A stretch of DNA of 64,000 nt, taken from Candidatus Gastranaerophilales bacterium. GTDB lineage: Bacteria > Cyanobacteriota > Vampirovibrionia > Gastranaerophilales > Gastranaerophilaceae. Shown here piece after piece: positions 4,540-45,904 of this stretch (within the stretch, counting starts at the first letter, position 1; each line of letters starts with the position of its first letter). A program made the translations under genes and the position numbers. The notes beneath the pieces were generated by a model. The model searched no databases, was not told the origin of the DNA, and saw only the letters and a list, made by a program, of their open reading frames with translations. The stretch covers positions 62,001 to 126,000 of the forward strand of contig CALURU010000001.1 in assembly GCA_944323255.1 (NCBI GenBank), read 5' to 3'.

Positions 4540-7500
4540 TTACGTAACTAAAAACGAGCTGTATTGTTGCTGCATGTTAGCGATAAGGATATCCATAGAA
4601 GCGAATTTAGCTTCAAGTTGAGCCCTGTATCTTTCAAGCGCTCTCTGCTGCTTATCAATCTTGTTGTCAATAGATTGGATTTCTCTCTGGTAAGAATCAT
4701 CCGCAGAAGCAAAATACCCCGTAACAGATTGGAGTGTAGATTCAAGCAGAGTCTCAATCTTTGTAAATATACCTGTATTACTGTCACTTCCGATTAGCAA
4801 AGCTTTAACCGCATCTTCATCCGCCTCAAACGCCTGAATAAATTTATCCTTGTCAAAAGTCAATTCTGTAATACCTTCCGTAGAAATATTATTAGCACTT
4901 GCAGAATCAACACTAATACCAATAGAATCAAGGTTTCTGAAAATAGTAGTTCCGGCATCGGACGCAGTCATCATTGTTCTAAGCTGATTCCTGATAAGTT
5001 TTAACAAAGATTGATCGTGTAACTCTCCATCAATAGCAATAGCCTCATCAACATTAGAAATAAGTTCATTGTAAGCATCAACAACATCAGAAATAGCCGT
5101 AGCAAGAGTTTCTTTATCTCTCTCAACAGTAAGTTTTACTGCAGACCCTTCTGTAAGCCCTTTAAGGTTTATTGTTACACCCTTAATTCTCGAAATGTCA
5201 CTGGTAATAGTATTAGACGCAGAAGTATATGTAGTTCCGTTAATAGAGAACACAGCATTCTTACCAACTTCCTGCGTATTAACATTCATCTTCGTTGTAT
5301 CAACATCACCATCAGCTTCCCAGGTCGTATTTGTATACCCCATAATATCTGTAAAATTACTTGTACCAGCTTCAATATTAATCAACGAAGAGCCGGTTGT
5401 TCTCGCCTGGATAACAAATTTACCCTGAATGCTGTCCCAATATGCAGTAGCATTTGCCTCATCACTCGAATTTATCTGTGAAATAATATCTGCTAATGTC
5501 GTTTTGTCTGTAATACTGAATGTAGCATTTCCAATAATAAATGTACCTTCAGTTACATCACCTCTTCTGAATAAACCGGTATGCGTTATCACTGAATCAG
5601 AATTAACGCTATACAATTCTCGTGCACTTACTACAGCACCTTCGCCATTACTTGACAAACCTGTTATTGCAGAGAAGTTTGAAGTATCTGTTGTAGACCC
5701 TACTTCTACTGAATGACCATCTTTGGAATAAAATTTTAAATACCCGTCTTCAAAAGTAATATCAACATCCGCAAACGATGCCGCTATTCTTGATCTCAAA
5801 TCCGTAAAGGTTTCGTCTGAATGGATATCAATAGTAGCTTTTTCGCCATCTCTGTATATTGATAAGGTTCCATCAGATATATTAAGAAGTCCCATCTCTG
5901 TATCAAATCCGGCATAATTTGCAACAGATAGTGTCCTTTCCTCTATCTCTGTTGTTGTCGCCATAGTGGTCTGGGAACTCGCTGCAAATCCGCCAAGATC
6001 CTGATTATACTTCAAACCTATAGTCGCAAGCAAGCTCGAAGTCGTACCATCATTATTAATAGTAAATGTATCAAAACCACTCTGTATAATCAGCTGTCCA
6101 TCAGAAGTAATAGAAGCTTCCAAACCCAAATCCTCAAATTTTGAAATTAATGAGCCAAAGGTTTCATCCGCAGTTATCTCTATAACTGCATTCTCATCAT
6201 TTACAGTAACTGACAATGAACCCTCTGCCTTGAGTGTTGAACCGCCCCAAGGGGTATCAAAGTAATTCAGAAGGGTCTCTTCTGTTATTGCCGAAGTTGT
6301 TGTTACTATCTCACTTGTCTGTTCCAAGCCTGAATAACTATAGCTGGAGTCGTGAGTTGTATCACCAAAAAGTTGTTCCACTACATTAGATGAGTTGGTT
6401 GTACTGGATGACTTAGTGATATACGAATCGCCATTACCTATTATTGTAAGTATTGAACTGTCTCCATCACTTACCAGAGAAGTCTCTATACCAAAGCTTT
6501 TTAAGGTCTCAAGGAAAGATCCCATTGTCTCGCCGGTTGAAATATATGCGGTATATTTTACACCATTATTGTAAATATAGTATTCACCGGTGGTTACACC
6601 TAGCAAAGACAATTCCGTATCCATTGTGATGGCGGCATCTATAGTGGTAGTTGTTACTACATTCAATGTCGAACTTTCATAGTTATTAGTCTGAACCCAG
6701 TTATTCAAATCTATACCAAGCAATGTTAGAGCATTGGACGCCTGACCACTGCCGGTATAATTCTGTAATAAGCTGTTGCCTGTATTTTTAATAATCAATT
6801 GCCCGTTGTCATTAAGTACTGTCTCAAAACCATACAATGCAAGCTCATCCATCAATGTGCCAATGGTATCGTCTGCAGTAAGTTCGATATTTGTTTGGAC
6901 ACCATCTTTTACTACAGTTATGAAGCCAGGCTGATACACCCCTTCATTAATATCAGAAAGTTTTGTATCTCTATCTACTGCTACGACTACATCCTCTGGT
7001 ATCTCCAGATTGTTTGAAGTATAAATATTAACAAAATCCCATTCGGCAAACAGGGTCGATACAATATTAGAGTTCTGACCGGAAAGCGCTGAGGTTGCCA
7101 AATAACTGTTATTATACGCTCCTACAGAAATCTGACCATTTTCAGAGATATCAACAATAAGTCCGTGTTCTGCAAGAAGTGCTTTCAGATCATTTACTGT
7201 CATATCGGCGGTTATCGTTTCAGTATTTCTGACTCCGCTGTTATAGACATAGAAGGTGCCCTCGGTGATGCCAAGGTTATTGCCTGACGCATCCTGGAGA
7301 TCACTCAGTTTTGTTGAACCGGTTACTACATTATCTACTTCTACAGTATATGAAAGGTTACCGCTTGTTGAATCATATCTCTCTGACCAATCCTGTATAT
7401 TGAGCTTCTGCAAGATATTAGATGCGCCGGAAGTGATGCCGGACGTGGTCATATAACTGTTATTGGTTCCTTCAAAGTATAAACTGCCATCACTTGAAAG

Positions 7501-10500
7501 CTCCATAGAGATTCCATATTGGGAAAGTTTTGCTGCAAGAGTCTGCAGGGTATCATTATTATTGATACTTACCTGATAACGGGTACCATCCTGATATACA
7601 TATATACTGCCGCTTGTTATACCAAGGTTGTTGCCTGCTGCATCGGTTAATTCGTTGAGCCTTGTATCAAGGGTTGTTTCGTGTACGATGGTCTCTTTGT
7701 CCTCAAGGTGGTCGGAGGTCTGCGTGACTGTGCCCATATCCCAGTCGGTTAGACCAAATACGTCAAGAATATTTGAGCCGCCGCTAAGTGAAGTGAGATA
7801 ACTTTCGCCTATACCGCTTACTGCCAAACGACCGGCGGCATCTATTTCCGATGAAAAGCCGTATTCTGCAAGGAAGTTCATGAAATCAGAAACAGTTAAT
7901 AGCTGGGTTGTATCTATATTAACTGTATAATTTACGCCTTGCTGCGTTATCAGAATATTGCCGCCTCGTATTCCAAATGTTGAAAGAAGAGTGGACGGAG
8001 TCATTGGACCAACAGTTGTTTCCACAAGGTTTGTTGATATATTATACGTATCGCTTGTGCCGTAGTCTTTGGTATATGAACCCATGAGGAGTTGACCAAG
8101 ATTACCAGATATCTCAAAATCCGTAAGAGTTGAGGAGGACATTGAAAATCTTCCGGAGGCATCGAGGATTGCCTGTATGCCGTATTCAGAAAGTTTATCT
8201 ATTACGTCATAGATAGACTGGGTGCGGGAGAACGTTAAGGTTACGTGTTGATTGCCGGCATCGGAGGTCGTTTGCAGGATGATTGTGCCATTGCCTGAGC
8301 CCATTGTATTACCGTTTTGATCCGCCAGATTACCGAGCTGGGTGCTGCCGCTTGCGGCAACAGTTGTTATTTGGGATAAGACATTCGAAGTGCGGTTTAC
8401 AGTTACGGTCTGGACATTGTATACAACATTACTCATTTTCATGGAGGTTAATATATTGCTTCCGCCGCTTACTGCCTGAAGGTAGACATTACCGACGCCT
8501 TCTATACTTACACGACCATCACTATCTATGTTGCCGACAAGACCATAGCGGGATATCTGCGTAAAGAATTCGCTTACGGTATCGGAGGCGTTAACAGTTA
8601 TCGTCACAAAACGTCCGTCGATCTGGTGTACGACTAATTTTCCGTTGCCGTTATTGAATCCATTGATGCTCGATAAGACTGTATCTCCGGTTATTCTTAC
8701 GTCATCATCTTCGTAGGAAAGGTAGTTAGAATCGGTATTGATCCAAGTTTTTTCTACTTCTGTAGTCCAGGAGTTATTTTCTCCGGCTTTTAGCGCTAAA
8801 GCGTTTGATATATTGCTCGATATCCCAACTATATAGCTGCCGCCTTCTCCGTCAAAGCTCAAACGACCGTTATTCACATAGCCCGCTATACCGTAACCAG
8901 CTAAAGTAGAAATGATATCATCTACTGTCTTATCAGGGGTTATGGTTACTACGTGGTTCGTTCCGTCTGAATGAACGGTAATTGTGCCGTTTGAATTTAC
9001 GCCCAAATCTTCCATGGTCGTACTCGTGGATAAGGTGACGACTTTGTTCTTATTCAATCTGTTTGAATCATCGTTGTAGTATATCTGATCTGTTTCTGTC
9101 CGGTATGTATTATTTGCACCGACTTTGAGTTTCAGAGCATTGGAAAGGGTTGTTGTCATACCGAGAATATACCCTTCGTCCGTTCCAGTAAATGTCAGTC
9201 TGCCGTTGTTTACAGAACCTGAAATTCCATAGCCTGCAAGAGTTGATATCAAATCATCCACCGTTGTATCGCCGGTTACTGTTACTACGTATTGTGTGCC
9301 GTTGCTGCGAACTGTTACATATGCATTAGAAGTCAGTCCGAGTGATTCCAGGGTTGAAGAAGTACTCATTGTGACGGTTACGTTCTTATTCAATCTGTTA
9401 GAATCATCGTTGTAGTATATCTGATCTGTTTCTGTCCGGTATGTATTATTTGCACCGACTTTGAGTTTCAGAGCATTGGAAAGGGTTGTTGTCATACCGA
9501 GAATATACCCTTCGTCCGTTCCAGTAAATGTCAGTCTGCCGTTGTTTACAGAACCTGAAATTCCATAGCCTGCAAGAGTTGATATCAAATCATCCACCGT
9601 TGTATCGCCGGTTACTGTTACTACGTATTGTGTGCCGTTGCTGCGAACTGTTACATATGCATTAGAAGTCAGTCCGAGTGATTCCAGGGTTGAAGAAGTA
9701 CTCATTGTGACGGTTACGTTCTTATTCAATCTGTTAGAATCATCGTTGTAGTATATCTGATCTGTTTCTGTCCGGTATGTATTATTTGCACCGACTTTGA
9801 GTTTCAGAGCATTGGAAAGGGTTGTTGTCATACCGAGAATATACCCTTCGTCCGTTCCAGTAAATGTCAGTCTGCCGTTGTTTACAGAACCTGAAATTCC
9901 ATAGCCTGCAAGAGTTGATATCAAATCATCCACCGTTGTATCGCCGGTTACTGTTACTACGTATTGTGTGCCGTTGCTGCGAACTGTTACATATGCATTA
10001 GAAGTCAGTCCGAGTGATTCCAGGGTTGAAGAAGTACTCATTGTGACGGTTACGTTCTTATTCAATCTGTTAGAATCATCGTTGTAGTATATCTGATCTG
10101 TTTCTGTCCGGTATGTATTATTTGCACCTACACGGAGTTTCAGAGCATTGGAAAGGGTTGTTGTCATACCGAGAATATACCCTTCGTCTGTTCCTGTAAA
10201 TGTCAGTCTGCCGTTGTTTACAGAACCTGAAATTCCGAAACCTGCAAGAGTAGATATTAAGTCATCAACAGTTGTATCGCCCGTTACTGTCACTATGTAC
10301 TGGGTGCCGCTGCTGCGGACGGTAACATATGCGGTTCCTGTCATTCCTAGCTCATCAAGGGTTGATGAGGTGCTCATCGTGACGGTTTCTGTTTTACTTA
10401 ATTTGTTAGAATCGTCGTTAAAGTATAGTTGGTCGGTTTCTGTTTTGTATGTATTATTTGCTCCGACTTTAAGTTTCAGGGCGTTAGAAAGAGTATTGGT

Positions 10501-13500
10501 CATACCGAGGATATACCCTTCATCAGTTCCCGTGAAGGTTAATTTACCGTTATTTACTCCTCCGGATATACCGTAGCCTGCAAGAGTAGATATTAAGTCA
10601 TCAACAGTTGTATCGCCCGTTACTGTCACTACGTACTGGGTGCCGCTGCTGCGGACGGTGACGTATGCGGTTCCTGTCATTCCTAGATCATCAAGGGTTG
10701 ATGAGGTGCTCATGGTAACGGTTGTATACTCTTCCAGATACTTGGATTCGGTATTTACCACATATTCACCTTCGCCCGAAACATATGTTTCGCCCTCGCC
10801 TGTTGTGAAGTCAAGCATATCTTTTACGTTCTGGCTCATACCTTCTACATATGACTGTTCGCCGCCAACAAGGGTTAGTTTACCCCCGTGCACGGAGCCC
10901 GCTATATCAAAACCGCCAAGGGTTGATATCAAGTCATCTATTGTATCTGTGCTCTTGATGGTTACTACGTGTTCTGTGCCGTCTGATACAACGGTTACAT
11001 AGCCTGATTCAGCCTCGCCCAGTCCGAGTAGTTCAAACAAGGTCGCTGTTGATAAATCAAGTTCGTCTGCGTGGGACAGAAGGTCGGAAGTTGAGTTCAT
11101 TGTGATTGTAACAACCACCATACCGCCTCCGCCGCCAGAGCCGCCGGCTCCCGCACCACTGCCTGCCTCGTAGTAACGGTAAAGGATACAAGAGTCGGTG
11201 TTGACTATTACATAATCCTCATAGAAAGTATACACGTTTTCTGTAACCTCGGTTGTTCTGCCGGAGCTTGTTATATTTAATTTCGGAGGTTCGCCGGTTT
11301 CGTATGTCCAGCCCTTATCAGCGGTAAAGCCGTAGCCCTCCATTGTTGTTTGGTCGCACATGTCGGAGTAGGAAAGTCCGGTGGTGTTATCTTGCATTAG
11401 GGAAATTGGATCTGGTCTGTAGCCTATAGATCTAATATAACCAATTGCTCCGGCATTATCATCCGAATTATATACTAATGAAGAACTAAATTCAGGAGTT
11501 AAGGTTGTAGCGGGCTGCCCATCTACATTGCCAATAATTCCGCCATTATATTGTCCTCCATATGCTTCGCCACTAAAATAGCATGTATTAAAACCCAGCG
11601 TATAAGTACCATCAGGTGTTATTGGTGTTGTGCTCGAAAATTTGGAATCATCCGGTAAATATAAATACCCTATTAATCCGCCTGCACTAGTACCACTATT
11701 ATCTATCAACGCATCAGTTATGAATACATCCCCTGTAGCATAACAATTGTTTATTGACGCAGTCTCCTGATAGTACATATTTATCATTCCTACTATGCCG
11801 CCGGCATAGCTGGTATCAGAAGATATATCACCTGTACTATAGCTATTGGAAACAACAATTGTAGCACTGTACTCACCTACTCTCATAGCTGTATCTTGAT
11901 TAGCGCCGAGTATACCGCCAGTCCTCCCAGATCCATGAATGTCGCCTGTTGAATAACAATTGTCAATAGTAATAAGGTTACCATCAATACCACCGACAAT
12001 ACCTCCAATAAGATCACCATTAGTATCTATATTCATTTCACTACTACAATTTTTGATAGTGCCTGCATAAGAGTTACCAATAATTCCTCCTACTAAATTA
12101 TTAACATATAGTGAATTAATTGAACCAGATGATTTACAATTACTAATAACAATATTTTGATTATTAGCATCAGCTATAATTCCGCCATATGCACTACTAT
12201 AACCACTACTGCCAATACCAGTACCATATAATGTAATATTTCCGGAGTATTCTAAATTGGAAGCTGCCTGGACACTATATGCTATTCCTACAATACCACC
12301 GACATAATTTGCACCCTCAATATCCGCATTGACAGAAGATTGAGTAATTGATGCACCGTACAAGTACCCAACAATGCCACCGGTACCTGAATTATAAGTT
12401 CCAGTATTTATGTTTATAATATTTAATTCAGAATGACAATTAGAAATTGAACCATTGTTTAACCTTCCAACAATACCGCCAACGTAACCATGGCTTGAGC
12501 ACTGTATACTTCCAGTTATATTGGAAAGATTCAAATTAGAAAGCGAAGTACCTCCAACGTACCCAAAGTATCCACCGATGTCACCAGAAGTAGCACCTGT
12601 TCTATCAGTGCTAATTATATTAAGGTTTGAACCGGATTTTATTGCAAGATTAGAGATTGTGGTACTACTAGATAAAGATCCAACCATTCCACCGACACAC
12701 TCTGCAGAAGGAAATGAAATATTTATATTACCTTCCATAAAAACGTTTGATAATTGACCTTGCAAATCTCCTGCAATACCACCAATATTACTACGATTTG
12801 AACCACTACTATTGTAAAAAGTGACATCTATATCTACAAAACCGGAAGTATATACATTAGAAATTGTTGAATTATTACCACTTCCGACTATTGTTCCAAT
12901 ACTTTTATCAGAATAACTGCTCTGAAATGTTGATTTAATAGAACAATTTTTAACATAACAATTATTTATCGTACTCCCGTTAGAACGACCAGCTATTGCG
13001 CCTATATACTCGAAAATATACGAATAGTTTGTATCATCTGCTATTACATTTATGTTTTCTATTCCGAGATCTTGAATAGTTGCATACTCTATACATATAA
13101 ATAAACCTATTCCCCTGTATCCAGAGTCAGTATCATATAATGATATATTAGAAATTTTGTGTCCATTACCTGCAAATACACCATTAAATTCCCTTATTGT
13201 ATCAATTTGTTGTCCATTAAAATTCAGATCTTTAGTTAATACTATTGTACAGTCGATACCATGCATACTACTAGAATTATTACTACTTGAAGCATAATAA
13301 TCATTAGCTAATTCTATAAATTTTTTGTACTCATCAGTTGTACTTATTGTATAAGTATTATTTTGTACAAGCTCAGTTACAAATGATATAGGTGTTGCAT
13401 TGCTGGCTGTTACAGTTGAAATAACAGTTAGGAAAGAAGTTGTTGTCAATTTAGTAGTCGTTGATATCTGCATTTGAGACAACATACCACCCGGAGCAGC

Positions 13501-16500
13501 ATCTTCTGCATAAATTTCATTTTTATTATCAAGGTAAAGGACTCCACCAGACATATAGGTATCTATCCCATTACTATTTAAAAAGTGAATTAATTCATCA
13601 ATGGTAGAGTATGTATGAAACACTTGTGATGCAATAATGTCTCCATCTGAATTTTTGACATTTATCGTAAAAAATTCAGAACTGCCAAAATTTATAATAT
13701 TGCCCATAGTATCACTGCCAACAGCAATACCGCCATCGGCAGCACCGCCTATTAATATACCGTTATCAATAATATCCTGCAAATTTTCAGAACCGGTATT
13801 AGTACCGTTTAAAGGTTTGTAAAATGTTATTCCACTTCCATTGCCAACATAACAATCTCTTTCATGTCCTCTTGTATGCGTAGGATGAGAATTTATACTG
13901 GAACCGGCATCTGTAGATTTTACATAACAATTTGTAATTATACCATCATTACCAACACCGCCTTCAGAAGGATAGCCATATTGACCTACAATATAACTCT
14001 CCATATTTTCTGTCGATTCAAAATAACAATTATTTATTCCTCCGGTATTATAGCGAGCAATACTGCTAAAATGGGAGCTCACAAGATTTTTCACTCCTAA
14101 ATCACTTATTGTACCTGAAGCAGATATAGTACCAAATAAGTAGCCCTGACGATTAGATGTAATAACATGTCCATTTCCATAAAATGTCCCAGCAAATTCA
14201 CCTATAGTATAATTAACAGAATTAATACCACTATTTTGTAAAGTTATATCGCTAGTTAGAATAAATGTTGCGCCACTACCTTTATTAGCACTTGCATTAA
14301 TTAAGTCAACAAAAGCTTTATATTCTGTGACACTATTAATCGTATACACATGACCTGCCAAAAAACCACTTGAGCTTAAAACAAGCTCAGAAATAGAAAT
14401 AGCATCATTGTCCACGACTTTGGTAACTTCAACGAGGAATGAAGCGGTAGTAGATTGCTGCGTGGTGACTTTAACTCCGATTTGCGTGAGCAGCCCGCCT
14501 GTAGTAGCATCTTCGGCATAGAAACCTTTGGAGTTATCAATAACTAAGATGTCATTTTGAATGGAAGCGCCGACGTTGTTGTCATTGAGGAACTTAATGA
14601 GATCTTGGATAGAGGCAGTTGCATAAAATTCTTGTGAAGCAACGATAAACCCGTCGGAGGATTTAATATTAATAGTCGTTGTTGCGTTGAGGAAATAACC
14701 GAGCTGTCCGAGCACGGCATTATCAGCTTTATCTCCACCGGCAACAATTCCGCCGCCGGCACCTCCTCCGGAGCTATTACCGATGCCGATATACTTAATG
14801 GCGTTGATACCAAGAGCATCAGCAACGTCTCCTGTCACATATTGCCCGTCTTGTGGTTGAAGCGATAGTACGCCGTTAATGAGCTTGGAATCAATACCGT
14901 TGTCTTTAAGCGAATTCATGAGTTGCTCAAAGGTAGTGGAATTGGATACTGTAATTGTAGCGATTTCTTTGTTGTTTTTGGAGTTAACGATTAGCGTATT
15001 CCCTAGATTGAGATCAATGACGTCAGATATTAGAGAGTTTTCGGTAGCGAGTACTGTATCTGTGTAAGTGATAGCGGATCCGGACGTAGCAACGAGTCCT
15101 ATAGTACCATTAGCTTGAATGGTTTTGGTGTAGATATTCATGAGACTAAGCAGGTCGGCATTTCCTCCTCCAGATACAATGTAGTTGTTTTCCGGGGATG
15201 AGATATGAATGATCCCGTTTACGATAGAGGCATCGATACCGTATTTAGCGAGTTCATCGAACATATCAGCGAAAGTGCTGTTGTTCAAAACCGTAACGGT
15301 TCCTACGATGTCTCCGTTCTGGTTTTTGACATCAATTTTCCCTTGTGTTCCATCAGCATAATTCGCCTGTGTTAAAACACTTACGAGCGAATCTTCCGTT
15401 ACCGCTATATTATCTGTATATGTAATTTGTGTAGTAGACGAGGCTGTCATACCAACGGTGTTGGTTACAGTAATTGTTTGAACACCGACTCCGATTTGTG
15501 TAAGAATGTTTCCGGCGACGTAGTACCCGTCTTGGGAGGTCATTGAGATGACTCCGTTGGAGATACCTGCCTGGATACCGTTTGCAGCGAGGGCGTTGAA
15601 GAGATCGTCGAGTGTTGACGTGGAGTTCAGAGTTATTGTGCTAACAGCTGTTCTATTATCATTGTAGACAATGATGTTGGAAGTTCCGGAGGAGTTCATG
15701 GTGGCGAATTCTGTTATCAGAGTATCCCCGGTGGCGTTGATATTATCTGTATGTGTAATTTGTACAGTTGAAGAGGAGGTCATACCGACAGTGTTAGTGA
15801 CGGTAATTGTTTGCATACCGATTCCGATTTGTGTAAGAATGTTTCCGGCGACGTAGTACCCGTCTTGGGAGGTCATTGAGATGACTCCGTTGGAGATACC
15901 TGCCTGGATACCGTTTGCAGCGAGGGCGTTGAAGAGATCGTCGAGTGTTGACGTGGAGTTCAGAGTTATTGTGCTAACAGCTGTTCTATTATCATTGTAG
16001 ACAATGATGTTGGAAGTTCCGGAGGAGTTCATGGTGGCGAATTCTGTTATCAGAGTATCCCCGGTGGCAGTAATATTTTGTGTATGCGTAACTTGTACAG
16101 TTGAGGAAGCTGTCATACCAACGGTGTTGGTTACAGTAATAGTTTGCATCCCGATACCGATTTGTGTAAGAATGTTTCCGGCGACGTAGTAACCGTCCGG
16201 TGAGGACATAGATATGACCCCGTTAGATATTCCAGCTTGAATGCCGTTGGCAGCGAGAGCATTGAAGAGGTCGTCTAGTGTAGAAGTAGCGTTCAGTGTG
16301 ATTGTGCTTATAGCTTTTTTGTTGTCGTCGTATACGATGATGTTGGAAGTTCCGGAGGAGTTCATGGTGGCGAATTCTGTTATCAGAGTATCCCCGGTGG
16401 CGTTGATATTATCTGTATGTGTAATTTGTACAGTTGAAGAGGAGGTCATACCGACAGTGTTAGTGACGGTAATTGTTTGCATACCGATTCCGATTTGATC

Positions 16501-19500
16501 AAGGAGGTTACCAGTTACGTAGTAACCGTCCGGAGAGGTCATTGATATAACCCCGTTAGAGATCCCAGCTTGAATTCCGTTTGCAGCGAGAGCATTGAAG
16601 AGGTCGTCTAGTGTTGACGTGGAGTTCAGTGTGATTGTGCTTATAGCTGTCTTATTATCGTTGTAGACGATGATGTTGGAAGTTCCGGAGGAGCTCATGG
16701 TGGCGAATTCGGTTATCAGAGTATCCCCGGTGGCGTTGATATTATCTGTATGTGTAATTTGTACAGTTGAAGAGGAGGTCATACCGACAGTGTTAGTGAC
16801 GGTAATTGTTCGCATCCCGATACCGATTTGTGTAAGAATGTTTCCGGCGACGTAGTAACCGTCCGGAGAGGTCATTGATATAACCCCGTTAGAGATCCCA
16901 GCTTGAATTCCGTTGGCAGCGAGAGCATTGAAGAGGTCGTCGAGTGTTGACGTAGAATTCAGAGTTATTGTGCTTATAGCTGTCTTATTATCGTTGTAGA
17001 CGATGATGTTGGAAGTTCCGGAGGAGCTCATGGTGGCGAATTCGGTTATCAGTGTATCCCCAGTAGCGGTAATGTTACTGGTGTATGAGATAATAATCGA
17101 GGAAGTGATTGTTTGCGCGACGGTGTGGGTTTGGGGATTAGCATTTTGTACAGAGATCCCGAGATTAGTCATGATGTTTCCGGTGGCGTAGTTACCGTTA
17201 GCGGAGTATAGTGATATGATACCGTCTGTAATGGAAGCTTGGATGTCGTAGAAAGCGAGTTCATTGAAGAGATCTTGAATAGTAGAGGATGTAGTAAGGT
17301 TGTTAATGGTACCGATAGGATTTTGTTTGTTGTCGAATATAACGATGTTGTCGTTTGGGTTTTTTATGGCCCCGATATCACCGAGCGTAGAGTTCAGGTT
17401 AGCGACAAAAGTTCCGGTGTATGTAATGGCCGCAGTTGATGAGGAAGTTGTGTTAATAACTTCTGTTGTAGATTGCGTAGTTATACCGAGATGATTAGGT
17501 AGCGAACCGGTAATGAACTTCCCTTCGAGAGAAGAGAGGGAAATCACTCCGTTGGCTATGGTACCATCGATACCTTCGTTTTTGAGTAGATTGAAGAGGT
17601 CTTCGATGGTGTTAGTAGCTTGTATGTTTATAGTTTTTAGCGGTTTGTTGAGCTTATCATTTATAATCACCGTAGAGTTACCGGTCAGCCCGAGATCGGA
17701 CATTTTTGTGTTGAGATCGGCGAAGACTTCTTGAGTAGTGTATAGAGTGTTTCCGGTAGCAGAAACGGAGTCTGTTGTAGTAACGGATGTGATCCCGAGA
17801 GCAGAGGCTACTGTTCCGGAGAGTGTACCACCGGAGATATTTAATCTGCCTGTGGCATCGAGGAAAGCTGAACCGCCTTTATCGTGTATCATCGTAATTA
17901 ACTCATTAAGAGTAGTATTAGCATTGACGTTGAGTTCTTGCGAGTTAAATCTAAGCGAGTAACCGCTTTGTACTTTATCTTGTGTATTAAGAGTTTGGAT
18001 AATTTCCCCGAGGGTAGTATCACCTGTTACTGCGGATATAGTTGTAATTGTCATGATGGATCCGAGCGCAAAGGAGGAGAGGTTGGATTCTTCAAGTCCC
18101 ATCGCATTTTCGAGTGTAGCGTTTTTGATGTATCCGTTTTCGATTTTGAGTATTCCGTCGTTGAAAGAGGCATGAATGTTGTTAATGTTGTTTATAAAGT
18201 TAATCAGATCAGCGATTGTTGTGTTTTCGTTCACGGTGAATGATGCAGCTTTGGACCCGTCGGAGGCGAAGATATCAACGGTTCTTTGCGCACTAGACAT
18301 GGAGTTAGAGATTCCGAATTCAGCGAGCTTAGAATCAAGCGTGGCTTCGATGGTGAGCGTTTCTTTTCTTGATAGGGGGTCAGAAGTTACGTATTTACCT
18401 GAAATAGTTTCAGTCAGCTGCAGAATGTCATCGAGGTTAGAGGAACCACCAGTGAGCGTTGCATTTTGAATGGTAATTCTGTGCGTATCGTCGTCGAACG
18501 TAGCTTCTATTCCGATGCTAAGGAGCTTGTCGCAGAGATTTTGAATGGAGTCGGATTGAGTTACGTTAATGGTCCTTTCTTGCCCCCTGACGTTGAAAAT
18601 AGCGGTACCGTTAGGGTACATCCCGAGATTGCCTAGAGTAGTAGACTTGGATGCTAAAATGGTGTTAGTAACGGAATGAGTTAGTGCTTGAGATTTTGAG
18701 TAAGTAGAAGCGACAGTTATTTGATCAGTGGAAATAACAGGAGCTCCGTATAGACAGGTAAGGATGTCGGACCCTTGCTGGTATCTTGGGTCAGCTTCTC
18801 TGATGGTTCCGTTGTCGATTAGTTCTTTTACCCTGTCGTCGGAGAGTGTATCGAAGGCACCACCTGTAATTTCGAGGACACCGTCATCTCTGAGCTTAGT
18901 GTAGATTCCGAGGTTACCGAGATCAGCCATGAAGTCAGCGAGAGTTTGTCCGTGGTAGATTTTTTCGTAGAAGATGTTTCCATCGGCATCAGTAACTTGA
19001 AGATATCCTGCCCTGACTTTGAGATCGTCGACTAACATTGTATCTAGCGTAACGATCTCGAAAGTTTGTATGGTTTCGGTGAGAGGTTTCCCTGTGGTCA
19101 TAGCGGTGTACGGTTCGGTTTTAAGTCCGAAAGCATTAATGGCATCGAATGAACCTCCAGTGATTGTACCACCGGAGATTTCGATAGTACCATCATCGTT
19201 GATGGCGGCATATAGCCCAGCGTTAGATAAATTGGCGAGGAAATCTCCAATGGTAGTAGAGGTACCGACTGTGATTGTAGCATATTCATTGTTGGAGTTT
19301 TTGACAATGACTGTTTGTCCGTTCGAGATGTTAATACCGTCTCCTAAATCAGCGATAAGGGTATCGGATGTAGCCGTTGTAGTTTGTGTAATGATTGATT
19401 TATGTGAGAGGTCGCCGGAGATTTGAGTGTTAGAGAAGACGTCAAAGACGAGCCCTAAAGCATCCGAGAAGTTAGTGCTACCTTCATTGGTAATTTTGGC

Positions 19501-20391
19501 ATCTTGAATGATGAAGTAACCGTCCTCTGATAAAGCTGCGTAAATGTTGTTATCGTTGAATTGTTTGATGATATCTCCTAGCGTGGTGTTGGAGTTAATG
19601 GTAAAGTAGTAGTCGGCGTCATTGGCGTTAACGGTAATGACGCCGTTTTTGACCCCGAGTTCACTGAGTGTAGTATCTTGAGTAGCAGCGGAGAAAATGG
19701 TATCAGTAGTAGAAGTATTTAGAGAGTTGCTTTCGTACCCTTCGTTGACGCCTTCGAGATGGAAAGCGTCTACGATACCGGTGTTGTCGATATCATTAAT
19801 GGCATTAGCATCGATATCCATGGAGAAGAGTCCTGTTTTTTCGTTATATGAAGCATTCACCCCTATGTTGTTGAGCTTATCTACGAAACTTTGTACAGTG
19901 TCATTTTCGGTTATGGTGATACCTCTCTCTACTCCGTTGACAAATACGCCGATGTTTCCGGCTTTAACACCGAGGTTTATAAGCTTGGAGTTAGCAGAGG
20001 CGGTAGTAGTTTGTATAATGGTGGTCATGTAACTAAAGTTACTATTTGCAGCAGTTCCACTAGCAAGTTGATCTACAAGTACATTATACTCTGCCTCTTC
20101 TGCCTCGGTAGTAGCAGTTGCAGTAAGGACATCAAGATCGGCAGAAGAGGCCAAATTTTGGGCAAACAAATCCATTGTTGCTATACCAAATTTAGCATCT
20201 GTCACTTTCTCAATTACCCCCCTGAATGAGGTGAAAAATGACTTTATATTATTTAATGTCTCTTGAGAAAGAAGTACTGTTTCTTTCTCTTCTTCAAGCG
20301 TGTCAATCTTCGCTTGCTTTAATGCGACAAGCGATTCTACCCAAGATGAAGTATCTAGTCCGGAAGCTAACCCGCTGAATGATATTGTCAT
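4540..20391 (-). CDS. fliD: Giant FliD-like flagellar filament cap protein (5283 residues) with an IN-motif array and beta-helix inserts
   Basis: One uninterrupted frame. Ordinary FliD caps the flagellar filament tip as a small oligomer and is about 450-700 residues long; this one is roughly ten times longer. Residues 1 to about 110 are a typical FliD N-terminus (ISFSGLASGLDT, then a long helix). The last 280 or so residues are a typical FliD C-terminus: the VTINLKGLTEGSAVKLTV strand block, the AISDVVDAYNELISNV helix and a terminal coiled coil. Between them I count about 35 units resembling the flagellin hook IN motif (pattern TTxxDLxxxLxxxGIxAxxxNGxIxI), including a 111-residue array at about residues 1097-1654 and a 112-residue array at about 3220-3780. 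Two beta-helix-like inserts (about 2005-2220 and 2335-3040) sit inside Gly-rich flanks. The protein is very rich in Thr, Ser and Asn and has almost no Cys. No other flagellar gene is nearby. It could work as a cap, as a tip adhesin or as a non-flagellar surface protein; the FliD ends are certain, the role is inferred. Confidence 0.9.
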   Translation of the reverse strand: MTISFSGLASGLDTSSWVESLVALKQAKIDTLEEEKETVLLSQETLNNIKSFFTSFRGVIEKVTDAKFGIATMDLFAQNLASSADLDVLTATATTEAEEAEYNVLVDQLASGTAANSNFSYMTTIIQTTTASANSKLINLGVKAGNIGVFVNGVERGITITENDTVQSFVDKLNNIGVNASYNEKTGLFSMDIDANAINDIDNTGIVDAFHLEGVNEGYESNSLNTSTTDTIFSAATQDTTLSELGVKNGVITVNANDADYYFTINSNTTLGDIIKQFNDNNIYAALSEDGYFIIQDAKITNEGSTNFSDALGLVFDVFSNTQISGDLSHKSIITQTTTATSDTLIADLGDGINISNGQTVIVKNSNNEYATITVGTSTTIGDFLANLSNAGLYAAINDDGTIEISGGTITGGSFDAINAFGLKTEPYTAMTTGKPLTETIQTFEIVTLDTMLVDDLKVRAGYLQVTDADGNIFYEKIYHGQTLADFMADLGNLGIYTKLRDDGVLEITGGAFDTLSDDRVKELIDNGTIREADPRYQQGSDILTCLYGAPVISTDQITVASTYSKSQALTHSVTNTILASKSTTLGNLGMYPNGTAIFNVRGQERTINVTQSDSIQNLCDKLLSIGIEATFDDDTHRITIQNATLTGGSSNLDDILQLTETISGKYVTSDPLSRKETLTIEATLDSKLAEFGISNSMSSAQRTVDIFASDGSKAASFTVNENTTIADLINFINNINNIHASFNDGILKIENGYIKNATLENAMGLEESNLSSFALGSIMTITTISAVTGDTTLGEIIQTLNTQDKVQSGYSLRFNSQELNVNANTTLNELITMIHDKGGSAFLDATGRLNISGGTLSGTVASALGITSVTTTDSVSATGNTLYTTQEVFADLNTKMSDLGLTGNSTVIINDKLNKPLKTINIQATNTIEDLFNLLKNEGIDGTIANGVISLSSLEGKFITGSLPNHLGITTQSTTEVINTTSSSTAAITYTGTFVANLNSTLGDIGAIKNPNDNIVIFDNKQNPIGTINNLTTSSTIQDLFNELAFYDIQASITDGIISLYSANGNYATGNIMTNLGISVQNANPQTHTVAQTITSSIIISYTSNITATGDTLITEFATMSSSGTSNIIVYNDNKTAISTITLNSTSTLDDLFNALAANGIQAGISNGVISMTSPDGYYVAGNILTQIGIGMRTITVTNTVGMTSSSTVQITHTDNINATGDTLITEFATMSSSGTSNIIVYNDNKTAISTITLNSTSTLDDLFNALAANGIQAGISNGVISMTSPDGYYVTGNLLDQIGIGMQTITVTNTVGMTSSSTVQITHTDNINATGDTLITEFATMNSSGTSNIIVYDDNKKAISTITLNATSTLDDLFNALAANGIQAGISNGVISMSSPDGYYVAGNILTQIGIGMQTITVTNTVGMTASSTVQVTHTQNITATGDTLITEFATMNSSGTSNIIVYNDNRTAVSTITLNSTSTLDDLFNALAANGIQAGISNGVISMTSQDGYYVAGNILTQIGIGMQTITVTNTVGMTSSSTVQITHTDNINATGDTLITEFATMNSSGTSNIIVYNDNRTAVSTITLNSTSTLDDLFNALAANGIQAGISNGVISMTSQDGYYVAGNILTQIGVGVQTITVTNTVGMTASSTTQITYTDNIAVTEDSLVSVLTQANYADGTQGKIDVKNQNGDIVGTVTVLNNSTFADMFDELAKYGIDASIVNGIIHISSPENNYIVSGGGNADLLSLMNIYTKTIQANGTIGLVATSGSAITYTDTVLATENSLISDVIDLNLGNTLIVNSKNNKEIATITVSNSTTFEQLMNSLKDNGIDSKLINGVLSLQPQDGQYVTGDVADALGINAIKYIGIGNSSGGGAGGGIVAGGDKADNAVLGQLGYFLNATTTINIKSSDGFIVASQEFYATASIQDLIKFLNDNNVGASIQNDILVIDNSKGFYAEDATTGGLLTQIGVKVTTQQSTTASFLVEVTKVVDNDAISISELVLSSSGFLAGHVYTINSVTEYKAFVDLINASANKGSGATFILTSDITLQNSGINSVNYTIGEFAGTFYGNGHVITSNRQGYLFGTISASGTISDLGVKNLVSSHFSSIARYNTGGINNCYFESTENMESYIVGQYGYPSEGGVGNDGIITNCYVKSTDAGSSINSHPTHTRGHERDCYVGNGSGITFYKPLNGTNTGSENLQDIIDNGILIGGAADGGIAVGSDTMGNIINFGSSEFFTINVKNSDGDIIASQVFHTYSTIDELIHFLNSNGIDTYMSGGVLYLDNKNEIYAEDAAPGGMLSQMQISTTTKLTTTSFLTVISTVTASNATPISFVTELVQNNTYTISTTDEYKKFIELANDYYASSSNNSSSMHGIDCTIVLTKDLNFNGQQIDTIREFNGVFAGNGHKISNISLYDTDSGYRGIGLFICIEYATIQDLGIENINVIADDTNYSYIFEYIGAIAGRSNGSTINNCYVKNCSIKSTFQSSYSDKSIGTIVGSGNNSTISNVYTSGFVDIDVTFYNSSGSNRSNIGGIAGDLQGQLSNVFMEGNINISFPSAECVGGMVGSLSSSTTISNLAIKSGSNLNIISTDRTGATSGDIGGYFGYVGGTSLSNLNLSNITGSIQCSSHGYVGGIVGRLNNGSISNCHSELNIININTGTYNSGTGGIVGYLYGASITQSSVNADIEGANYVGGIVGIAYSVQAASNLEYSGNITLYGTGIGSSGYSSAYGGIIADANNQNIVISNCKSSGSINSLYVNNLVGGIIGNSYAGTIKNCSSEMNIDTNGDLIGGIVGGIDGNLITIDNCYSTGDIHGSGRTGGILGANQDTAMRVGEYSATIVVSNSYSTGDISSDTSYAGGIVGMINMYYQETASINNCYATGDVFITDALIDNSGTSAGGLIGYLYLPDDSKFSSTTPITPDGTYTLGFNTCYFSGEAYGGQYNGGIIGNVDGQPATTLTPEFSSSLVYNSDDNAGAIGYIRSIGYRPDPISLMQDNTTGLSYSDMCDQTTMEGYGFTADKGWTYETGEPPKLNITSSGRTTEVTENVYTFYEDYVIVNTDSCILYRYYEAGSGAGAGGSGGGGGMVVVTITMNSTSDLLSHADELDLSTATLFELLGLGEAESGYVTVVSDGTEHVVTIKSTDTIDDLISTLGGFDIAGSVHGGKLTLVGGEQSYVEGMSQNVKDMLDFTTGEGETYVSGEGEYVVNTESKYLEEYTTVTMSTSSTLDDLGMTGTAYVTVRSSGTQYVVTVTGDTTVDDLISTLAGYGISGGVNNGKLTFTGTDEGYILGMTNTLSNALKLKVGANNTYKTETDQLYFNDDSNKLSKTETVTMSTSSTLDELGMTGTAYVTVRSSGTQYIVTVTGDTTVDDLISTLAGFGISGSVNNGRLTFTGTDEGYILGMTTTLSNALKLRVGANNTYRTETDQIYYNDDSNRLNKNVTVTMSTSSTLESLGLTSNAYVTVRSNGTQYVVTVTGDTTVDDLISTLAGYGISGSVNNGRLTFTGTDEGYILGMTTTLSNALKLKVGANNTYRTETDQIYYNDDSNRLNKNVTVTMSTSSTLESLGLTSNAYVTVRSNGTQYVVTVTGDTTVDDLISTLAGYGISGSVNNGRLTFTGTDEGYILGMTTTLSNALKLKVGANNTYRTETDQIYYNDDSNRLNKNVTVTMSTSSTLESLGLTSNAYVTVRSNGTQYVVTVTGDTTVDDLISTLAGYGISGSVNNGRLTFTGTDEGYILGMTTTLSNALKLKVGANNTYRTETDQIYYNDDSNRLNKNKVVTLSTSTTMEDLGVNSNGTITVHSDGTNHVVTITPDKTVDDIISTLAGYGIAGYVNNGRLSFDGEGGSYIVGISSNISNALALKAGENNSWTTEVEKTWINTDSNYLSYEDDDVRITGDTVLSSINGFNNGNGKLVVHQIDGRFVTITVNASDTVSEFFTQISRYGLVGNIDSDGRVSIEGVGNVYLQAVSGGSNILTSMKMSNVVYNVQTVTVNRTSNVLSQITTVAASGSTQLGNLADQNGNTMGSGNGTIILQTTSDAGNQHVTLTFSRTQSIYDVIDKLSEYGIQAILDASGRFSMSSSTLTDFEISGNLGQLLMGSYTKDYGTSDTYNISTNLVETTVGPMTPSTLLSTFGIRGGNILITQQGVNYTVNIDTTQLLTVSDFMNFLAEYGFSSEIDAAGRLAVSGIGESYLTSLSGGSNILDVFGLTDWDMGTVTQTSDHLEDKETIVHETTLDTRLNELTDAAGNNLGITSGSIYVYQDGTRYQVSINNNDTLQTLAAKLSQYGISMELSSDGSLYFEGTNNSYMTTSGITSGASNILQKLNIQDWSERYDSTSGNLSYTVEVDNVVTGSTKLSDLQDASGNNLGITEGTFYVYNSGVRNTETITADMTVNDLKALLAEHGLIVDISENGQISVGAYNNSYLATSALSGQNSNIVSTLFAEWDFVNIYTSNNLEIPEDVVVAVDRDTKLSDINEGVYQPGFITVVKDGVQTNIELTADDTIGTLMDELALYGFETVLNDNGQLIIKNTGNSLLQNYTGSGQASNALTLLGIDLNNWVQTNNYESSTLNVVTTTTIDAAITMDTELSLLGVTTGEYYIYNNGVKYTAYISTGETMGSFLETLKSFGIETSLVSDGDSSILTIIGNGDSYITKSSSTTNSSNVVEQLFGDTTHDSSYSYSGLEQTSEIVTTTSAITEETLLNYFDTPWGGSTLKAEGSLSVTVNDENAVIEITADETFGSLISKFEDLGLEASITSDGQLIIQSGFDTFTINNDGTTSSLLATIGLKYNQDLGGFAASSQTTMATTTEIEERTLSVANYAGFDTEMGLLNISDGTLSIYRDGEKATIDIHSDETFTDLRSRIAASFADVDITFEDGYLKFYSKDGHSVEVGSTTDTSNFSAITGLSSNGEGAVVSARELYSVNSDSVITHTGLFRRGDVTEGTFIIGNATFSITDKTTLADIISQINSSDEANATAYWDSIQGKFVIQARTTGSSLINIEAGTSNFTDIMGYTNTTWEADGDVDTTKMNVNTQEVGKNAVFSINGTTYTSASNTITSDISRIKGVTINLKGLTEGSAVKLTVERDKETLATAISDVVDAYNELISNVDEAIAIDGELHDQSLLKLIRNQLRTMMTASDAGTTIFRNLDSIGISVDSASANNISTEGITELTFDKDKFIQAFEADEDAVKALLIGSDSNTGIFTKIETLLESTLQSVTGYFASADDSYQREIQSIDNKIDKQQRALERYRAQLEAKFASMDILIANMQQQYSSFLVT
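9050..10730 (-). repeat. Tandem 336-bp (112-residue) repeat array inside fliD
   Basis: The same landmark (ctgatctgtttctg) recurs at 9085, 9421, 9757 and 10093, an exact 336-bp period. The units spanning about 9065-10110 are essentially identical at DNA level, two more copies up to about 10730 are diverged, and weaker relatives lie on both sides. Each unit encodes one IN-type motif (GDTTVDDLISTLAGYGISG) plus a YILGM..LSNALKL segment. Near identity points to recent duplication and makes copy number prone to assembly error. Confidence 0.95.
11270..13390 (-). other. Large GLUG-like right-handed beta-helix insert within FliD
   Basis: This covers about residues 2335-3040 of the FliD protein. It opens with a lead-in (TISTTDEYKKFIELAN, TIVLTKDLNFNGQ, FAGNGHKISNISL) and continues with many short turns of the form GGIVG...ISNCYS.GDI. 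This is the GLUG-motif pattern known from large secreted adhesins and peptidases. It ends before a Gly-rich linker (GAGGSGGGGG) near 11130-11160. By eye the DNA is more AT-rich than the IN arrays on either side. Confidence 0.8.
13740..14380 (-). other. Smaller beta-helix-like insert within FliD
   Basis: About residues 2005-2220. It has the same lead-in grammar as the larger insert: TINSVTEYKAFVDLINAS, then TFILTSDITLQ, then FAGTFYGNGHVITS. Turns with NNCYFES and TNCYVKS follow. A Gly-rich linker (SSGGGAGGGIVAGG) lies upstream near residue 1878, and one IN-type unit separates the two inserts. It looks like an older, shortened relative of the large insert. Confidence 0.7.
15440..17105 (-). repeat. 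Tandem 333-bp (111-residue) repeat array inside fliD
   Basis: The landmark aagttccggaggag occurs at 15681, 16014, 16347, 16680 and 17013, spaced by exactly 333 bp. The five units are highly but not fully identical. Each encodes GDTLITEFATMxSSGTSNIIVY, an IN-type motif with LDDLFNALAANGIQAGISNG, and a GYYVAGNILTQIGIG segment. Confidence 0.95.
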
Positions 20392-20710
20392 TTGTTCTCA
20401 CCTATTGTATTTGGGGTAAAGTTTGAGGTGCAACCCCTGAAGCACCTTGATAGTTTATTATAAGTAGAATGACCTAGTCCTTATAAGGTATCGCTCTTCT
20501 TATTAATTAATATACTACTTTTATAGCTAAGATGTCCATTCTTCTTATATTCCTGATTTGTGTAGGGTTATATGCTTAAGTATAAGGTTTGTACAATATA
20601 CTTATAACTATACTATACCACCTTATTATTATATCACATGTATTTACTCTTGTGAACCCCTTAAAAATATTTTTCTATATTAAGTATATATATTTCTTAA
20701 TAATTGACTA

Positions 20711-45522: not shown

Positions 45523-45897
45523 AAAGTGCACGGACGGACTGGAAAACGGGTTGGTAGTCTTTAGACAAAATGTGTACCGCCCAAAGGGTTCCTAAATAGT
45601 GTAAAAATGTTGTAATTGTGTTCCAAAGGTGTACGGACGAACTAGAAAATGGGTTGGTAGTCTTTAGACAAAATGTGTACCGCCCAAAGGATTCCTAAAT
45701 AGTGTAAAAATGTTGTAATTGTGTTCCAAAGGTGTACGGACGAACTAGAAAATGGGTTGGTAATCTTTAGACAAAATGTGTACCGCCCAAAGGATTCCTA
45801 AATAGTGTAAAAATGTTGTATTTGTGTTCCAAAGGTGCACGGACGGACTGGAAAACGGGTTGGTAGCTATTAGACAAAATGTGCACCGCCCAAAGGA
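45523..45897. repeat. 103-bp tandem repeat between tsaD and obgE
   Basis: About 3.6 copies with an exact 103-bp period; the landmark ttggtag/taatc recurs at 45551, 45654, 45757 and 45860. Conserved pieces are CGGACGGACTGG, ACAAAATGTGTACCGCCC and AATAGTGTAAAAATGTTG. The last copy runs directly into the obgE ribosome site (CCCAAAGGATAAAAAA before the ATG). It is non-coding or regulatory; no stable hairpin with a T run is seen. Confidence 0.9.
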
Positions 45898-45904
45898 TAA
45901 AAAA

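What the first reader, a model, noticed from the sequence alone, without database searches (positions are those of the whole stretch)
4540..20391. A 5283-residue FliD: a flagellar cap protein enlarged about tenfold
The two ends are standard FliD, but the variable middle, which is a few hundred residues in known caps, is about 4900 residues here. If five or so copies still cap a filament, the tip would carry several megadaltons of Thr/Ser-rich modules. This suggests a flagellar-tip adhesin, or a cap protein reused as a surface fibre. I know of no described system of this size.
Basis: partly seen in the sequence, partly recalled or inferred. Interest (0 to 1): 0.88.

Follow-up and report, generated by a model that had tools for sequence, protein, structure and literature searches.

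The report
Giant second flagellar cap protein
A gut bacterium related to cyanobacteria carries, beside its normal flagellar cap protein, a second copy about nine times larger whose middle is a string of 35 copies of the cap's own head domain plus beta-solenoid-like inserts; most sister species carry versions of very different length, which suggests a long fibre or adhesin on the flagellum tip.

Summary
The 5,283-aa ORF is real. It lies on the minus strand (20391 to 4540), has FliD_N and FliD_C ends, and has 23 other full-length relatives of 1,200-6,131 aa in sister genomes. It is not the organism's ordinary cap: the genome also has a 578-aa FliD, almost invariant (573-585 aa) across the genus. 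The giants form one clade beside it (95/97) and occur in about 25 of 34 genomes of one Gastranaerophilales genus. Outside that genus the longest FliD frame was 1,172 aa in some 470 sampled genomes.

The middle is 35 copies of a ~110-aa beta-grasp module, the FliD D2 head domain, present twice in the normal FliD. Order: 17 modules, 242-aa insert, 1 module, 786-aa GLUG insert, 17 modules. Outer modules keep their positions between species; central ones expanded recently. Both ends sit in the cap core, so the chain should loop out and back with the inserts at the far end.

Best reading: an alternative cap, its core under purifying selection, presenting a long double stalk with a variable tip, probably adhesive. 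Export, capping and adhesion are inferred. New variant of a known kind.

The parts
4540..20391 (-). giant fliD paralogue, 5,283 aa
20047..20391 (-). N-terminal D0/D1 core (residues 1-115; FliD_N at 10-111)
   Evidence: Pfam PF02465 E 4e-14; 51% identical to the ordinary FliD
14440..20010 (-). outgoing array: D2-type modules 1-17 (residues 128-1984)
   Evidence: module HMM; modules 1-9 position-conserved across species
15407..17068 (-). recent tandem DNA array of 333 nt, 5 copies = modules 10-14
   Evidence: TRF; 92-96% protein identity
13714..14439 (-). insert 1, 242 aa (residues 1985-2226), no Pfam match
13393..13713 (-). module 18, between the two inserts (residues 2227-2333)
11035..13392 (-). 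insert 2, 786 aa (residues 2334-3119), GLUG motifs, probable beta-solenoid
   Evidence: PF07581 E 4.5e-21; fold not modelled
5275..11034 (-). returning array: D2-type modules 19-35 (residues 3120-5039)
   Evidence: module HMM; modules 26-35 position-conserved; three modules modelled as beta-grasp
9046..10668 (-). recent tandem DNA array of 336 nt, 4.8 copies = modules 20-24
   Evidence: TRF; 90-100% protein identity
4540..5277 (-). C-terminal D1/D0 core (residues 5039-5283; FliD_C at 5043-5275)
   Evidence: Pfam PF07195 E 1.2e-39; profile finds FliD in PDB
20628..20656 (-). promoter-like TTCACA-N17-TATAAT, similar to that of the ordinary fliD
   Evidence: pattern match only
20413..20420 (-). 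TTTACCCC motif in the leader, recurrent in giant fliD leaders
   Evidence: 11 of 25 leaders with TTACCCC against 0.1 expected in shuffles

Best explanation
It is an alternative flagellar cap protein (a second FliD). After one duplication of fliD, at or near the origin of this Gastranaerophilales genus, one copy stayed at 578 aa and presumably builds the ordinary cap. In the other, the D2-type head domains multiplied into long tandem arrays and GLUG/solenoid-like domains were inserted in the middle of the array. Proposed mechanism: the protein is exported unfolded by the flagellar type III apparatus, its conserved D0/D1 ends assemble as, or into, the cap ring at the distal end of a filament, and each subunit projects a loop of about 17 modules out and 17 modules back, with the inserts at the far end. 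The result is a megadalton tassel on the flagellum tip, most likely an adhesin or long-range tether to mucus, plant fibre or other cells in the gut. Shown here: homology, paralogy, architecture, module fold (by prediction), purifying selection on the core. Inferred: export, capping, loop geometry, adhesion.
For: FliD_N and FliD_C above cut-off. A complete 1,200-aa relative is predicted with D0/D1 helices and matches solved FliD caps (Foldseek E 1e-14, probability 1.00; mean pLDDT 75.8). Window modules predicted at pLDDT 90-98 with disordered linkers; leading structural matches are FliD D2 (Z 5.8-6.6). The module HMM hits 35 times in the giant and exactly twice in the ordinary FliD, filling its whole head. 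17-insert-1-insert-17 symmetry; in most giants inserts lie centrally. Modules 1-9 and 26-35 match the same positions in other species, modules 10-14 and 20-24 their own protein. Core dN 0.07-0.17 against dS above 1. Terminal motifs MTISFSGLASGLDT and QQYSSFL-like kept in both paralogues. Flagellar genes present. Published: FliD heads can be swapped, removed or replaced by the larger H. pylori head and still give working caps, heads with pI below 5 being tolerated (PMC8533109); the head here has pI 4.1.
Against: No expression, localisation or binding data; the organisms are known from metagenome assemblies. About 9 of 34 genomes of the genus show no giant, some of them 97-99% complete, so it is dispensable. 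Four relatives have a stop or frameshift inside the gene. The ordinary FliD could do all the capping. The symmetry is not universal (modules before/after inserts 3/10 in L116, 10/5 in L047). dS is saturated, so dN/dS is rough.
Confidence: 0.6

Rival explanations
1. Secreted fibre or adhesin that borrows FliD ends only as an export signal for the flagellar type III apparatus: it is released, or stays on the cell surface, without capping a filament.
For: The ordinary FliD is present for capping; the giant can be absent in nearly complete flagellated genomes; its gene is not in a flagellar cluster.
Against: Both ends are conserved, including the C-terminal D0/D1, which a mere export signal would not need; purifying selection acts on the whole C-core; predicted core matches assembled caps.
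Confidence: 0.2
2. Mixed cap: one or a few giant subunits co-assemble with ordinary FliD in the same ring, so a tip bears one or two fibres rather than five.
For: Both paralogues share the terminal motifs and descend from one FliD; a mixed ring would ease crowding of five very large heads.
Against: Core identity is only 43-51% between paralogues, and published data show that the terminal coiled coil controls compatibility (PMC8533109).
Confidence: 0.12
3. Decaying or selfish expansion: the array grows by recombination without function.
For: Recent tandem arrays; large length differences between species; four broken copies.
Against: Core and outer modules are conserved in position and sequence across species, most long frames are intact, dN is low.
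Confidence: 0.06
4. Misassembly of an ordinary fliD with other repeats.
For: Metagenome assembly; near-identical modules; many relatives' contigs end inside the gene.
Against: Several independent assemblies hold intact giants of 3-6 thousand aa with matching outer modules.
Confidence: 0.02

Closest known systems
FliD (HAP2), flagellar filament cap with D0-D1-D2-D3 (E. coli, Salmonella, Pseudomonas)
   Same: N- and C-terminal D0/D1 core, head formed by an insertion between core helices, D2 beta-grasp-like module, acidic head
   Different: one or two head domains in about 450-600 aa, against 35 modules plus two inserts in 5,283 aa; here it is a second paralogue beside an ordinary FliD
Multi-domain FliD of Helicobacter pylori and Campylobacter jejuni (D4, D5)
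   Same: extra head domains of similar fold in one cap protein (PMC8306008; PMC12221982)
   Different: one or two extra domains and about 74 kDa, against 33 extra modules, inserts and 558 kDa
Giant flagellins (over 1,000 aa; PMC6248924)
   Same: flagellar subunit with conserved ends and a much enlarged outer region
   Different: filament subunit, not cap; thickens the filament rather than arming the tip
Long repetitive bacterial adhesins such as the 1.5-MDa ice-binding adhesin (4p99, 5irb)
   Same: string of repeated beta domains that could hold a distal module away from the cell; weak Foldseek matches
   Different: other domain fold and, from general knowledge, type I secretion; likeness of plan, not of descent

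Membership tests
FliD / flagellar hook-associated protein 2 | FliD_N and FliD_C domains at the two ends | tested here: met
   PF02465 and PF07195 above cut-off; the C-core profile finds only FliD entries in the PDB, best E 1e-20
FliD / flagellar hook-associated protein 2 | D0/D1 helical core made from both ends, head domains inserted between | tested here: met
   model of a 1,200-aa relative (L077) matches solved caps; not modelled for the 5,283-aa protein itself
FliD / flagellar hook-associated protein 2 | head made of D2/D3-type beta domains | tested here: met
   window modules align to FliD D2, Z up to 6.6; the same HMM covers the ordinary FliD head
FliD / flagellar hook-associated protein 2 | descent from FliD | tested here: met
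   giant clade beside the ordinary FliD clade of the same genus, 95/97
FliD / flagellar hook-associated protein 2 | export by the flagellar type III apparatus and assembly as a ring on the filament end | not testable with these tools
   export genes are present; assembly needs experiment
FliD / flagellar hook-associated protein 2 | needed for filament growth | not testable with these tools
   an ordinary FliD is also present and several species lack the giant
bacterial adhesin (functional class) | binding to a surface or receptor | not testable with these tools
   only GLUG motifs and a repeat stalk speak for it

The most novel reading that the evidence does not exclude
A genus-wide family of alternative flagellar caps in which the cap's own head domain was multiplied into a double stalk, up to 17 modules a side, carrying variable solenoid tips, so that the end of the flagellum becomes a megadalton adhesive or sensing tassel beside a conserved ordinary cap.
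Probability: 0.5. Interest if true: 0.87.

Novelty: new variant of a known kind. Interest (0 to 1): 0.78.

Why it matters
The cap is known as a small folding chaperone at the filament end. A second cap nine times larger, made by multiplying its own head domain and kept in most species of one gut genus, would make the flagellum tip a place to present very large surface structures, and would test how much a flagellar export channel and a five-subunit ring can carry. It also gives a natural series (1,200 to 6,131 aa) in which stalk length and tip vary while the core stays constant, and a lead on how uncultured gut Melainabacteria attach.

Tried and rejected
Misassembly or chance frame: rejected, independent genomes hold intact giants. 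Giant as the only cap of the organism: rejected, an ordinary FliD is present. A second flagellar system unique to this genus that would explain a second cap: a second FlhA-like gene exists, but across the order, also in genera with one FliD. Conserved flagellar neighbourhood: none; flanking genes are metabolic or transport genes and synteny is kept only in the closest relatives. Pfam hits to CBS, OTU1_UBXL, SUMO-like and ubiquitin: read as fragments of one beta-grasp module, not separate domains. Known RNA element in the leader: no credible Rfam match. Literature on a giant FliD: none found.

Full report
1. The observation. The ORF at window 20391..4540 is on the minus strand and encodes 5,283 aa without a stop. 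FliD_N and FliD_C lie at its two ends. The protein is 558 kDa, pI 4.15, rich in Thr and Ser.

2. It is a second FliD. The window's genome (2.23 Mb, 49 contigs, 98% complete) has an ordinary FliD of 578 aa, on a 19.3-kb stretch that occurs twice in the assembly. It also has FliS, FlhA and at least ten flagellins; neighbours of FlhA look like FliQ, FliR and FlhB by eye. So the organism is set up to build flagella.

3. Distribution. In 34 genomes of the same genus, ordinary FliD is 573-585 aa, and most genomes carry one or more further FliD genes with open frames of 741 to 6,137 aa, some cut by contig ends. Judged by either end, about 25 of 34 have a giant; some nearly complete genomes (G011, G020, G017) have none. 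Twenty-five distinct giants with a complete start measure 1,200 to 6,131 aa; one of these, L112, is a 2,017-aa front part cut by a frameshift. In other genera of the order and class FliD is usually single and mostly 480-800 aa, and most sampled genomes of the family have no FliD. In 149 genomes of the phylum of a Saccharibacillus and 150 of the phylum of a Pantoea, the longest listed FliD frames were 1,172 and 915 aa. Named records are Candidatus Gastranaerophilales (Melainabacteria) assemblies, from rumen, horse and yak gut where the title names a source. In a scan of the genome collection, matches outside that group were ordinary-sized FliDs.

4. Descent. On an IQ-TREE of the joined N- and C-cores the giants form one side of a branch (95/97, all 200 bootstrap trees) and the ordinary FliDs of the genus the other; FastTree on the C-core alone agrees (0.988). 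This fits one duplication. The root was placed at the midpoint and the two outgroup rows are long, so the timing relative to the base of the genus is not fixed. Some species have tandem giants (G005, G013).

5. What the middle is. A profile seeded from two repeats and iterated over the FliD set finds 35 modules of about 110 aa in the window protein and exactly two in the ordinary FliD, covering residues 111-337, its whole head. AlphaFold predicts each module as strand-strand-helix-three strands-helix at pLDDT 90-98, joined by about 20 poorly ordered residues. Foldseek puts FliD caps among the leading matches, none below E 0.001; VIA-align puts a module on FliD D2 of E. coli (Z 6.6, 3.2 A, 86 residues), with mostly FliD, FlgK, hook protein and flagellin in the top rows. 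A Z under 8 can reflect a common arrangement only, but the top rows are flagellar and the sequence profile links module and ordinary head directly. A beta-grasp domain in FliD, FlgK and FlgL was proposed in 2007 (PMC1949818), which explains the scattered ubiquitin-like hits.

6. The inserts. Between modules 17 and 18 lie 242 aa without a Pfam match, and between 18 and 19 lie 786 aa with GLUG motifs. Other long giants have one to six inserts, many GLUG-like by eye. The window has 17 modules on either side; in most other giants the inserts are central, with exceptions. That the GLUG insert is a beta-solenoid is my expectation from its sequence, not a modelled result.

7. How the array evolves. 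Modules 1-9 and 26-35 of the window protein have their best match at the corresponding position in other species (54-84% identity), whereas modules 10-14 and 20-24 are closest to each other. The DNA shows two tandem arrays of 333 and 336 nt. The outer parts of the array are therefore old and stable, the centre young and variable.

8. Mechanism. Both termini must return to the same D0/D1 core, which a 1,200-aa relative keeps in prediction. The chain then runs outward and back, so the variable centre lies farthest from the cap: a conserved double stalk with a variable tip. This geometry is inference from topology. Tolerance of large heads is documented in P. aeruginosa, where heads can be deleted, swapped or replaced by the larger H. 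pylori head, and where acidic heads are tolerated (PMC8533109); the giant head has pI 4.1. A native cap is a pentamer (PMC12221982); five giants would make 2.8 MDa. The core is under purifying selection (dN 0.07-0.17, dS saturated). The ends, which in P. aeruginosa control compatibility with the filament, are kept.

9. Regulation. Ordinary fliD genes share GGGTTGAAA...ACATG...TATAAT. The window giant has GGGTTCACA...ACATG...TATAAT, and many giants a similar arrangement with a longer leader. TTACCCC occurs in 11 of 25 giant leaders against 0.1 expected in shuffles, and in 1 of 26 ordinary ones. This is a pattern match only.

10. Verdict. By sequence and fold it is a FliD. It probably works as an alternative cap carrying a tip fibre or adhesin (0.6). 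It is a new variant of a known kind: the domain and the cap are known; the multiplication, the inserts, the size and the genus-wide second cap were not found described.

Noticed in passing
L004 254-19558 and L005 696-20000: A 19.3-kb stretch carrying the ordinary fliD is on two contigs of the window's genome at 99.995% identity: a recent segmental duplication or an assembly duplicate.
   Followed up: partly
window 20413-20420 and leaders of giant fliD genes: TTACCCC motif in 11 of 25 leaders of giant fliD genes (0.1 expected). In the window a hairpin AGGTGC/GCACCT with GGGG in its loop lies just before it and might pair with it.
   Followed up: partly
L053 and L104 (same contig), residues 791-859 of the 2,985-aa giant: An acyl-carrier-protein domain (PF00550, E 2.5e-12) with a DSL motif sits in frame inside the GLUG region of one giant FliD; not found in any other giant held.
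   Followed up: partly
L161 8710-10803, L162 701-2791, L163 4023-5495: Genomes across the order mostly carry three FHIPEP genes: FlhA, a second full-length FlhA-like beside a FliH-like gene, and a protein of about 490 aa with only the C-terminal part.
   Followed up: partly
L163 3-3050 (G000 contig C28): A flagellin of at least 1,016 aa, cut by the contig end, in the same genome; ten or more flagellin genes in all, one apparently split (L165 5556-7345).
   Followed up: no
L112, L108, L118, L100: Giant fliD genes of four relatives are interrupted by one frameshift or one in-frame stop: assembly error, decay or switching.
   Followed up: partly
L082 10928-12499, also L092, L096, L122: A 523-aa protein beginning MGMSATQARYLNLIAQQSDLEF, without Pfam match, lies near the giant fliD in four relatives.
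   Followed up: partly
window 45526-45898: A 103-nt tandem repeat, 3.6 copies, 94% matches.
   Followed up: no
L090 (CAMORE010000001.1): A record titled uncultured Acinetobacter carries a giant FliD of the Gastranaerophilales kind; the assembly is probably mislabelled.
   Followed up: no
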